Shown in pieces: positions 55,968 to 58,612 of a stretch of 64,000 nt of DNA. The stretch is taken from assembly GCA_030280995.1 (NCBI GenBank), contig JASXTE010000001.1:7267001-7331000 (forward strand), in the 5' to 3' direction. Under the pieces are notes generated by a model, which saw nothing but the letters and a program-made list of their open reading frames with translations, did no database searches and was not told the DNA's origin. The translations under genes and the position numbers were made by a program. This DNA comes from Hemileia vastatrix. Its lineage: Eukaryota > Basidiomycota > Pucciniomycetes > Pucciniales > Zaghouaniaceae. How positions within the stretch are numbered: position 1 is the stretch's first letter; every line of letters starts with the position of its first letter.

Positions 55968-57292
55968 TCAGTGGTTGTCCAATAGTTGTTTCTTCAAGGT
56001 TTTATCAAAGTCATTTAAAGGTCCATGGAGGGCAAAGGCTTTCAGCATGTTTGAACACATGGTGCTGAGGTGTTGTTTCATGTCTCCATAATCCAGGGTC
56101 AAAGAAGTTTTTAGAGGTTGGCCAACTCCAATAGTAGATTCAAGAGGAGGGGTTCCAACTAGAAAAGAAGAATTGGATCAGTAATTATTTTTGTTGAAGA
56201 AATTGGATGAATTAATGTGGTACTTACAGATTGAAAGCTCATCAAATTTGTAAGTGGCCGGAATTTGGACTTCTGAAGATTTTGGAATGGTGATAGTAGG
56301 TGGATCAATCAGGGAAAGATATGGATTCTCTTGGTCTTCCTCTGAAAGTTTTTGAGAAGGTGAACTAGGAGGCTGATGTTCCTGGGGCCTAGTTGGAGCA
56401 GCAGGCCTGTTGTTGCTGTTGTAAATATTTCTGCTTGATTCAGTTGGATGAGGTGCTGGTGATGGAGTACAAGGGTTGTTATAAGATGGGGCAGGAGAGG
56501 GTGATCTGGAAGCGGATTGATCTCTTCTGGATGGAGCTCTTGAAGGAATGGAATTGTTAGAAGAATAGTTGGCTGGCAGAGGAGAGGTGTAGTTTTGTTA
56601 CCTTAACTGGGGGAAAAGTTGTTGTTTTGGTGCAGTGTTGGGTGTTCTGGTGTCTTCCTGGGGTCCTCTGGCAGGTCTACTAGAAGTTTGGGAAATTTTG
56701 GACTTTTTGTACCTTAGAAAGGTTGGCTGCATTTCTCTGGGAGTAGTGGGAGGGGGCTGCGTGGAGTTGTTTTTGTTGATTGGAGGAATTTGGCTGTTTT
56801 CTGGTTGTTTTTGGAAGTTTTGAGCCTGATTTTCACTGTCTAGTGAGGCGGGCGGGCCGCCTGGATGCGGTCTAGCAGCCTAGGAGCTGATTTTGAAGCT
56901 TTTGGAGCTAAATTAGATGAGATAAAAGCTGTTTCTTGGGGAGTTAAAGCAGGCCTTTTGGGGAGAGTTCTGGAAACTGAGTTCCAGGATCTTCTGGATG
57001 GTGCTGAGGATAAAGATGAAGAGGATGGACCAAGCTCTGGGGATCTGGTAGGGGATCTGGAGAGGTATTTATGAGAAGTTGAAGGAGGAGGAATAGGGTA
57101 GTTGGCATCTCTGTCACATTTCTTCTTCTTGGAGTAGCAAGAATCACAGGCCCTGTTGTAGAATTTGGCTTCAGGAGTTGGAAGAGTGAATGTGCAAGGT
57201 CTGCACATGTGGATGCACTGTTTGCAGGCATAGTCCTTGGGAGACGTGAAGCAAGGAAGATTGGAGGGGTCAAAATCAGGGGATCCAGCCAT
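55968..57292 (-). pseudogene. Antisense accessory gene 1: Cys-cluster, Ser/Pro-rich protein (one frameshift, one stop)
   Basis: Minus-strand gene from MAGSPDFDPS at 57292. Residues 23-59 form C-X2-C-X6-C-X15-C-X2-C-X6-C, ending ACDSCYSKKKKCDRD, which looks like the basic half of a fungal Zn2Cys6 cluster but placed second. Ser/Pro-rich sequence follows. The frame stops at 56840 and continues in another frame from about 56850, so a one-base change in the GC-rich stretch GGCGGCCCGCCCGCC is likely. A TAA interrupts at 56598-56600. A typical intron (56227-56159, GTAAGT...TTTTCTAG) joins ELSI to FGTPPLES in phase, and the last exon ends KKQLLDNH at 55968. Possibly a DNA- or RNA-binding regulator; function unknown. 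Confidence 0.6.
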
Positions 57293-57445
57293 GATCTGTG
57301 GTGAGAAAAGATGATGGAAAGAGATAAGAAGGAGATTTTTGTCAGTGATGGGTAGATGATGAAGTGAAAGTGGAAGCTCAGCAGGTTGGCTGTAGGTGTA
57401 TTATGCATGAAATTGGCTGGGTCTATTTTATGCAAAATTCTGTGC

Positions 57446-57930
57446 AGTCCATCAAGACTTTAAACTGAAATCCAGTATCTGGTAGTCCTCCAAGACTTTA
57501 AACTGGCTGGTTTCAAGGAGTTTCAAGAATAGGCCATCAAGACTTTAAACTGAACACTGTGTTAGTCCCCCAAGACTTTAAACTGAGGATTGTTTGATTG
57601 TGTAGTCCCCCAAGACTATAAACTGAGGAATGGGTTTTTGTTGTTGGAATGGGTTTGAAAGATTGGAAGAGGGTATCCACAGGGGGAGCCTCTGAATTTA
57701 GCAAAGGCAAGTTTGGGGGTAATTGATGGGCTGGCAGCTCTATTCAAAATTACCCCAGAATGTTAGTTTTTTTCTCTGTGTCTTAATGTGGTTGATCTCT
57801 GGTTCTGGGTTTATGATTTAGGTTTTTGAGTCCCCCAAGAATTTAAACTGTGGGTTTTTGAGTCCACCAAGACTATAAAATGAGGATGGTCCCCCAAGAC
57901 TTAAAACTGAGGGTTGTTTGTGGTTACATC
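57446..57930. repeat. Array of short repeats around AAGACTTTAAACTG
   Basis: At least eight copies of a CCCCCAAGACTTTAAACTGAGG-like motif (for example near 57451, 57490, 57537, 57569, 57609, 57835, 57868 and 57893) at irregular spacing, with diverged copies near 54735 and 54995. They lie between the two antisense genes, where the promoter of gene 1 should be. They could be regulatory sites or remnants of tandem expansion. Confidence 0.6.
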
Positions 57931-57970
57931 CTATAGAGGGTGTGGTCAATTCTTCTTTTCTGAATCAAGC

Positions 57971-58612
57971 TCAAGTACTAGTGGAATTACAGAGGGAATC
58001 AAGAGATGAAATGAAGTGTTCAGAATTAGCCTTGAACTGGTGAATGAGGTGTCTTCTTTTCTCAATGTCATGTGGATCTCTAGCAGGAGTGGATTGTAAG
58101 TAGTTTAGCAGAAAGTGTTTCTGTTGAGATGTGTGTTGTTGGAGCTTGGCCTTAATTGCGGGCAAGTGGTTTGGTGTTGGTGGCTCAATGGATCCTACAT
58201 TGTTATCATCACTGTCAGAAGATGGAGGAACTGAGAAGTCATCAGTTTTATAAAGTGGAAGGAAGAAATGGAAGCTTTTATCATCAGATGGACCAGGGAT
58301 GGTGGAACTTGTTGTTTTAGTGGTTTTGGCACTCTTCTGAGAAGGGTGTAGCTTTTTGATTAATCTGGGAATCAAGATGGATGGCCCAGATCTTTTGTTG
58401 CTGGTAGAAGATGGACCAGGTTGAGGTGGAGGTGAAGCTGTTGCAGAAGATAATGGACCAGGTCTGTAGCAGGTCTTCTTTCTGGAGTGGAAGACATCAC
58501 AGGACGTTCTGTATGGATGGACAGGAGGTGTGATGGTGCAGATTAGACTATTGTCAATGCAGTATTGGCAAGGACCCATTTCAGAGGCAGATTTTGGAAG
58601 AAGGTTGAACAT
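57971..58612 (-). CDS. Antisense accessory gene 2: Cys-cluster, Ser/Pro-rich protein
   Basis: An intact 213-codon frame on the minus strand, ATG at 58612, only about 50 bp from LTR-C. Residues 15-48 give C-X2-C-X6-C-X12-C-X2-F-X6-C (PCQYCIDNSLIC, then SCDVFHSRKKTCYR), aligning with the cluster of accessory gene 1; one Cys is Phe. A Ser/Pro-rich linker and basic stretch (LIKKLHPSQK) follow. The C-terminus is helical-looking (LLNYLQSTPARDPHDIEK) and recurs in the decayed antisense gene near 41180. No RT, protease or nuclease motif. Its 5' end facing the LTR suggests transcription from an antisense activity of LTR-C. Family not recognised. Confidence 0.65.
   Translation of the reverse strand: MFNLLPKSASEMGPCQYCIDNSLICTITPPVHPYRTSCDVFHSRKKTCYRPGPLSSATASPPPQPGPSSTSNKRSGPSILIPRLIKKLHPSQKSAKTTKTTSSTIPGPSDDKSFHFFLPLYKTDDFSVPPSSDSDDNNVGSIEPPTPNHLPAIKAKLQQHTSQQKHFLLNYLQSTPARDPHDIEKRRHLIHQFKANSEHFISSLDSLCNSTST

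What the first reader, a model, noticed from the sequence alone, without database searches (positions are those of the whole stretch)
55968..58612. Two antisense accessory genes inside an LTR retrotransposon, between pol and the 3' LTR
The inner element is bounded by matching 1072-bp LTRs, PBS, PPT and an ACGG duplication, so the 4.2 kb after pol belongs to it. That space encodes two minus-strand proteins with the same N-terminal Cys cluster, one with a textbook intron. Antisense genes between pol and the 3' LTR are reported for some plant Ty3 elements, but I know of none in fungi with a paired zinc-cluster layout. They could regulate element transcription, target integration or act on the host.
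Basis: partly seen in the sequence, partly recalled or inferred. Interest (0 to 1): 0.88.

Follow-up and report, generated by a model that had tools for sequence, protein, structure and literature searches.

The report
Antisense regulator genes in fungal retrotransposon
A very abundant fungal jumping gene carries, on its opposite strand, two related genes that natural selection has kept, and their protein heads look like a fungal gene-switch domain with its two halves swapped, which suggests that the element brings its own regulators along.

Summary
The element spans 46824-59732: 1072-bp LTRs, ACGG duplication, PBS, PPT, pol in Ty3 order. Between pol and the 3' LTR lie two minus-strand genes: A (57292 to about 55743, one 69-nt intron) and B (58612-57971). 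Both, on one strand, occur in 46 of 46 compared loci (loci were found through this region). Fixed differences between two subfamilies show purifying selection in these frames (omega 0.13-0.42); copy-private changes look neutral. Intron GT and AG are kept in 45 of 47 sequences. The window's gene A is broken: a 19-bp slip deletion at 56853-56861, common in the family, shifts its frame, and its stop at 55968 is in only 5 of 47. Both proteins begin with a Zn2Cys6-like cluster whose halves are in reversed order against GAL4 and an ethanol-regulon factor (weak single matches). A 12-bp motif array without fixed differences lies between the genes. Best reading: element-encoded DNA-binding regulators acting on the element; that action is inferred. 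Antisense pol-3'LTR genes are known in plants and in the fungal element Boty, so this is a new variant of a known kind.

The parts
46824..59732 (+). inner Ty3-type LTR retrotransposon (12,909 bp), inserted in an older related element
   Evidence: self-blastn, sequence, Pfam order PR-RT-IN
46824..47895 (+). 5' LTR
   Evidence: 95.4% to 58661-59732
58661..59732 (+). 3' LTR
   Evidence: an LTR start in the expected orientation is in 37 of 38 long loci
46820..46823 (.). target site duplication ACGG (other copy 59733-59736)
   Evidence: sequence
47900..47917 (+). primer binding site-like sequence (tRNA-Lys-like by recall)
   Evidence: sequence
58651..58660 (+). polypurine tract
   Evidence: sequence
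48356..54480 (+). gag-pol frames, broken in this copy: protease, RT, Integrase_H2C2, rve
   Evidence: ORFs, Pfam
57971..58612 (-). antisense gene B, 213 aa, N-terminal half-swapped zinc cluster (window copy has Phe at the fifth Cys)
   Evidence: omega 0.30, p 3e-4
56228..57292 (-). antisense gene A exon 1, with half-swapped zinc cluster; frame broken in this copy
   Evidence: omega 0.13 and 0.42 before and after the slip site
56853..56861 (-). 19-bp slip site: one 9-bp repeat left here; long copies have two repeats with 10 bp between them
56159..56227 (-). intron of gene A, 69 nt, GT-AG
   Evidence: GT and AG kept in 45 of 47 sequences
55743..56158 (-). gene A exon 2; the window has an early stop at 55968, most copies end at 55743
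   Evidence: omega 0.15, p 5e-8; stops counted
57456..57909 (+). array of 8 GACTTTAAACTG-like sites between genes A and B (two more at 54738 and 54999)
59106..59143 (+). 38-bp GC-rich motif in the LTR (other copy 47268-47305), nearly the same as the long form of gene A's slip site on the other strand

Best explanation
Genes A and B are accessory genes of a Ty3-type retrotransposon, read against gag-pol from the region at and left of the 3' LTR. They share one domain and are probably paralogues. Each puts a Zn2Cys6-like binuclear cluster, with its two halves in swapped order, at the N-terminus of a Ser/Pro-rich protein. Shown: place, strand, intron signals, the shared cluster, swapped order by sequence, and purifying selection on the frames while the lineage was active. 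Inferred: that they are transcribed, that the clusters bind zinc and DNA, that the proteins go to the nucleus, and that they recognise the element's own DNA (most likely the GACTTTAAACTG array, or else the CGG/CCG-rich LTR motif) to switch the element on or off or to lift host silencing, as VANC proteins do for VANDAL elements. The 19-bp slip deletion that breaks gene A in many copies would then be tolerated because intact copies supply the protein in trans.
For: Both genes on one strand in 46 of 46 loci; an LTR start in the expected orientation in 37 of 38 long ones. Omega 0.30/0.13/0.42/0.14 on fixed differences, singletons 0.79-1.30; of the other frames only the plus frame sharing the third position is constrained in the A regions, and it holds stops. 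Intron signals conserved. Cluster against GAL4 (1aw6, 1d66) and the ethanol-regulon factor (1f4s): the protein's second half aligns to the known domain's first half and the reverse. Pfam Zn_clus on the isolated B domain of L018: 25.9 bits, cut-off 21, two stretches. Motif array: 4-7 sites (mean 6.0) on one strand in 39 sequences, none on the other strand, in one shuffle of each, or in the window's 3' LTR; 0 of 96 motif columns have a fixed difference against 18 of 563 other intergenic columns, and shared variants per column are 0.042 against 0.142; the four second-subfamily loci carry 8-10 sites in the fetched stretch.
Against: No transcript, structure, zinc or DNA-binding data. PDB matches are weak (E 0.47-1.0; each stretch alone far from significant) and profile searches with the whole proteins hit only unrelated chains. 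Full-length proteins stay under the Pfam cut-off, and A's cluster alone too (14.3 bits). The lack of fixed differences in the motif columns alone is not significant (p 0.09), and repeats can be kept alike by recombination. Over the whole window the motif count is only mildly above chance (4 of 100 shuffles reach it); the signal is its clustering. Gene A's linker (15) is longer than the recalled canonical 5-12. Only 26 of 100 listed places carry the long, frame-keeping form of gene A. Variants shared within the main group are near neutral in A's second part and exon 2 (0.94, 1.09).
Confidence: 0.5

Rival explanations
1. The two proteins are integration-targeting or tethering factors: the zinc clusters bind host DNA or chromatin and steer new copies to permissive sites.
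For: DNA-binding-like heads; the element sits nested in a relative of itself, and high copy number is compatible with safe-site choice.
Against: Antisense products have no obvious way into the gag-pol particle; no insertion-site preference was tested; the conserved motif array lies inside the element, not at targets.
Confidence: 0.18
2. The useful product is antisense RNA or a balance of sense and antisense transcription (limiting the element's own copy number); the proteins are secondary.
For: The antisense genes cover much of the 3' part of the genomic RNA; this role is discussed for plant elements (PMC7264820, passages).
Against: Selection acts on amino acids in one minus-strand frame per region.
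Confidence: 0.12
3. The proteins act on host functions (for example host silencing enzymes or host gene promoters) rather than on element DNA.
For: Fungal zinc-cluster proteins usually regulate genes in trans (general knowledge).
Against: No host target known; the conserved array inside the element offers a nearer target.
Confidence: 0.15
4. Captured host gene fragments or chance frames without function for the element.
For: No relative was found in the collections searched, and the window's gene A is broken.
Against: Strong purifying selection between subfamilies, conserved intron signals, and the same layout in 46 of 46 loci.
Confidence: 0.03

Closest known systems
Boty-like Ty3 elements of Botrytis cinerea with antisense gene brtn
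   Same: fungal LTR element with an additional antisense gene between pol and 3' LTR (PMC7264820 section 5; PMC8365987 passages)
   Different: the text seen names one gene and no zinc cluster; brtn's sequence was not at hand, so homology was not tested
Retand / Grande / RIRE2 (plant Ty3) with aORF-3R genes such as TRP28
   Different: plants; another domain; no such domain was matched by Pfam in A or B
VANC proteins of Arabidopsis VANDAL DNA transposons
   Same: element-encoded protein that acts on repeat arrays in the element's own noncoding DNA; arrays vary between relatives (PMC5735166 and PMC10398659, abstracts)
   Different: DNA transposon, other protein family (recalled); binding and anti-silencing are reported there and only inferred here
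Zn2Cys6 (GAL4-type) fungal transcription factors
   Same: CX2CX6C twice, with a basic CDxC half and a second half like GAL4's
   Different: halves in reversed order; no Fungal_trans match; under the Pfam cut-off at full length
HBZ of HTLV (recalled; the passages seen in PMC7264820 and PMC11963269 speak only of HTLV's antisense promoter and antisense genes)
   Same: antisense gene at the 3' LTR
   Different: retroviral protein of another family (recalled); no homology tested

Membership tests
Ty3/Gypsy LTR retrotransposon | matching LTRs with TG..CA ends, PBS, PPT and target site duplication | tested here: met
   (window copy only)
Ty3/Gypsy LTR retrotransposon | order protease - RT - RNase H - integrase | tested here: met
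   protease in the 48356 frame (20 bits, cut-off 24.3), RVT_1 in the 51865 frame (17.5, cut-off 29.6), Integrase_H2C2 in the 53092 frame (41.1, over), rve in the 53551 frame (31.8, cut-off 32.6); RNase H was scored only in the outer element's piece 59774-60484 (over cut-off)
antisense pol-3'LTR accessory genes (aORF-3R) | gene on the opposite strand between pol and 3' LTR | tested here: met
antisense pol-3'LTR accessory genes (aORF-3R) | present in most copies of the family and conserved as protein | tested here: inconclusive
   46 of 46 loci, but all were found through this region; protein conservation met
antisense pol-3'LTR accessory genes (aORF-3R) | homology to brtn, gene23 or TRP28 | not tested
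   those sequences were not at hand
Zn2Cys6 binuclear cluster | six Cys with CX2CX6C-X5-12-CX2CX6-8C spacing (recalled) | tested here: inconclusive
   B: 2-6-12-2-6, fits; A: 2-6-15-2-6, linker too long; window B has Phe for one Cys
Zn2Cys6 binuclear cluster | basic half first, then the second half | tested here: not met
   halves in reversed order against GAL4 and 1f4s and in Pfam coordinates
Zn2Cys6 binuclear cluster | Pfam PF00172 over the curated cut-off at full length | tested here: not met
   best 20.1 bits against 21; only the isolated 46-aa piece of L018 B passes, 25.9
Zn2Cys6 binuclear cluster | binds zinc and CGG-type sites | not testable with these tools
VANC-like anti-silencer | binds a repeated motif in the element's own noncoding DNA and removes silencing | not testable with these tools
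   only the array was shown

The most novel reading that the evidence does not exclude
A circularly permuted (half-swapped) Zn2Cys6 domain, duplicated inside a fungal Ty3 element, forms a two-protein, antisense-encoded, sequence-specific switch that recognises the element's own 12-bp array and counters host silencing: a retrotransposon counterpart of the VANC system, in fungi.
Probability: 0.25. Interest if true: 0.82.

Novelty: new variant of a known kind. Interest (0 to 1): 0.64.

Why it matters
Accessory antisense genes of LTR retrotransposons are known, but the papers seen (PMC7264820, PMC11963269) call their function unknown. Here is a family with very many copies in which selection on both proteins can be measured, a recognisable DNA-binding-like domain in an unusual order, and a conserved candidate target array in the same element. 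That makes the old question of what these genes do directly testable. It would also be an example of a permuted binuclear zinc cluster.

Tried and rejected
Homologues elsewhere: B and the A exon 1 alignment against 5.8 billion proteins, B against plasmids, both alignments against viral contigs: none. These collections probably hold few fungi, so this does not show that the genes are absent from other fungi. The source species was not identified; fungal origin rests on 24 Fungal_trans matches.

Within-family variants: codon-position bias among 39 close sequences was weak because most variation is copy-private; subfamily differences were needed. L036, intermediate between the groups, was dropped from those counts (1 of 47 rows).

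RNA hairpins in the 190-bp blocks: z-scores -0.92, -0.05 and -1.45, and in the LTR motif -0.14 and 0.85, none notable; no Rfam match at E up to 0.5.

An intron instead of the 19-bp deletion to explain gene A's frame change: no plausible splice pair seen by eye; direct 9-bp repeats explain it. A second minus-strand frame of about 110 aa over gene A's start shows no constraint (the two other minus frames there have omega 1.97 and 2.57). The idea that the LTR's GC-rich motif is unusually conserved failed: the block holding it is more variable than the LTR mean (0.128 against 0.058), as expected of CpG sites.

Literature: in the titles and abstract starts listed (11 of 11; 20 of 233; 15 of 74; 12 of 12; 10 of 40; 10 of 176; 6 of 6; 6 of 14) I saw no report of such genes in rusts or other basidiomycetes, and none of the ten papers listed holds the words circular permutation. 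Most subscription papers are not held.

Full report
WHAT IS THERE. The window (G000:C26:7267001-7331000) holds an LTR retrotransposon at 46824-59732, nested in an older related one (self-matches). Its LTRs are 1072 bp each, 95.4% identical, end in TG...CA and are flanked by ACGG; a PBS-like stretch follows the 5' LTR and a purine tract precedes the 3' LTR. gag-pol lies on the plus strand in Ty3 order, broken in this copy; several domains score under their Pfam cut-offs. After pol come about 4.2 kb whose plus-strand frames of 80 aa or more are few and short (at most 113 aa before the LTR).

TWO ANTISENSE GENES. Gene B is a 213-aa frame at 58612-57971. Its ATG lies about 50 bp from the 3' LTR edge, and in several copies an open frame of 253 aa with an upstream ATG reaches into the LTR, so its transcript probably starts in the LTR (inference). 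Gene A starts at 57292. Of six further copies, four were chosen for long frames: three run open from the same ATG for 327, 348 and 350 aa, past the window's break; the fourth, L050, has a stop near the start and is then open for 472 aa to the end of the stretch, through the intron region. An intron at 56227-56159 follows, and exon 2 ends at 55743 in 36 of 39 ungapped sequences. All 46 loci compared (L009-L046, L048-L055) have both genes on one strand, and 37 of 38 long loci hold an LTR start in the expected orientation; the exception is L044. These loci were found through this region, so the share of all element copies that carry the genes is not known. Whole-genome searches gave 15,165 and 11,872 first-look candidates for B and A exon 1; only the best 150 each were scored, and these matched at 86% identity or more. 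By hand count 94 of the 150 B matches have no internal stop.

SELECTION. 47 sequences (the window and 46 loci) were aligned over the antisense region. Four (L052-L055) form a second subfamily, about 96% alike within and 86-90% to the rest. L036 was left out as intermediate; the main group has 42. A difference counted as fixed if its base had at least 80% in the main group and at least 75% in the four. Singleton mutation rates served as the neutral expectation. B: 19 amino-acid-changing, 19 silent, omega 0.30, p 3e-4. A before the slip site: 12 and 29, omega 0.13, p 3e-10. A after it: 42 and 29, omega 0.42, p 6e-4. A exon 2: 5 and 11, omega 0.14, p 2e-4. Exon 2 with the extension past the window's stop: 11 and 23, omega 0.15, p 5e-8. 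Variants private to one copy give 0.79-1.30, as expected of dead copies. Variants shared by three or more of the main group are intermediate in B and A part 1 (0.58, 0.53; p 0.05 and 0.04) and near neutral in A part 2 and exon 2 (0.94, 1.09); this last result speaks against constant selection on the second half of A within the main group. In the six-frame control the constrained frames are the proposed ones and, in the A regions, the plus frame that shares their third position, which has 5, 11 and 1 stops. In the intergenic control one plus frame reached omega 0.38, p 0.048, with 14 stops. The intron's GT and AG are both intact in 45 of 47, and 38 of 40 ungapped sequences have an in-frame stop in it.

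STATE OF THIS COPY. At 56853-56861 the window has one copy of a 9-bp repeat where long copies have two with 10 bp between them; the 19-bp difference shifts gene A's frame. A search that does not favour either form, but needs exact flanks of the main type, found 381 places; of the 100 listed, 26 are long (74-75 bp) and 74 short (55-56 bp) by hand count, none between. Gene A contexts like those of the second subfamily also appear with the long form, while L052 and L053 are short, so the deletion has probably arisen more than once, as template slips in reverse transcription do. The stop at 55968 is in 5 of 47. The fifth zinc-cluster Cys of B is Phe in the window and in 9 others, Cys in 34 of 45 ungapped sequences.

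THE ZINC CLUSTERS. A and B share one N-terminal domain (35% identity over 43 columns, E 1.7e-5, probability 78.5%). B has Cys spacing 2-6-12-2-6, A 2-6-15-2-6. A 46-aa piece of B (copy L018) found two PDB sequences at E up to 10, both GAL4 (E 0.85 and 1.0), and in both its second half aligns to GAL4's first half and its first half to GAL4's second. A 44-aa piece of A does the same against 1f4s, listed as ethanol regulon factor (AlcR by recall; E 0.47); its other match is an endosome-associated protein (E 2.6). Each stretch alone is far from significant, and profiles of the whole proteins hit only unrelated chains. In Pfam, B's first half matches Zn_clus positions 16/18-35 in 5 of 5 copies, and A's second half matches positions 1-16 in 5 of 5; B's second stretch is counted there but its place is not printed. 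The 46-aa piece of B scores 25.9 bits against a cut-off of 21; the A piece 14.3; the 348-aa frame of L048 9.5. 14 of 18 B and 19 of 22 A sequences touch Zn_clus at E up to 1. The reading of a circular permutation is mine; the two-fold likeness of the halves, which makes it plausible, is recalled knowledge.

CANDIDATE TARGETS. Between A and B lies an array of a 12-bp motif: 8 sites with up to two mismatches in the window, all on one strand (over the whole window 16 sites against 9.9 expected, reached by 4 of 100 shuffles, so the signal is the clustering). With one mismatch allowed there are 4-7 per sequence in 39, none in one shuffle of each or in the window's 3' LTR. Its columns hold no fixed difference (0 of 96 against 18 of 563; p 0.09) and fewer shared variants (about 4 in 96 columns against 80 in 563; p 0.004). 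The whole intergenic stretch is less diverged between subfamilies (18 of 659) than B (38 of 637) or A's start (41 of 427), which suggests constraint or exchange between copies. A second candidate is a 38-bp GC-rich motif in the LTR that is nearly the same as the long form of gene A's slip site, on the other strand; its 18-bp core occurs exactly 1093 times in the genome, none for the reversed control; of the 100 places listed, 8 have gene A-like and 4 other contexts, the rest LTR-like, by hand count.

MECHANISM. The best reading is a pair of element-encoded DNA-binding regulators acting in trans on element copies. VANC proteins of Arabidopsis VANDAL elements are the closest working model (abstracts). 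This step is inferred. Rivals are integration targeting, an antisense-RNA role and action on the host.

NOVELTY. [quoted passage not shown] Not met in the listings seen: the paired genes with a shared cluster, the swapped zinc cluster and the measured selection.

Noticed in passing
window 47268-47305, 59106-59143 and gene A slip site 56853-56861: A 38-bp GC-rich, partly palindromic motif stands in the LTR and, inverted, in gene A; its 18-bp core has 1093 exact places in the genome, 4 of the 100 listed in other contexts.
   Followed up: partly
window 54561-54749, 54822-55011, 57668-57850: A block of about 190 bp occurs three times (about 74-82% in most matches between window blocks and other copies), twice after pol and once upstream of gene A, each ending in the GACTTTAAACTG motif; a GGGGT...ACCCC stem is there but folding is not significant.
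   Followed up: partly
window 41600-46823 and 59737-61791: An older, related element is split by the inner one; its LTR is 83% like the inner LTR, and only 491 bp of inner-like sequence continue in L047.
   Followed up: partly
G000 contigs such as C385, C10, C472: 12 of 13 Zn_clus matches and 11 of 24 Fungal_trans matches lie at low coordinates of other contigs than the large ones, several in long uninterrupted frames; these may be contaminant DNA of another fungus.
   Followed up: no
L025 and L040, LTR motif position: Two copies carry a different GC-rich sequence at the LTR motif's place, as if the module had been swapped.
   Followed up: no
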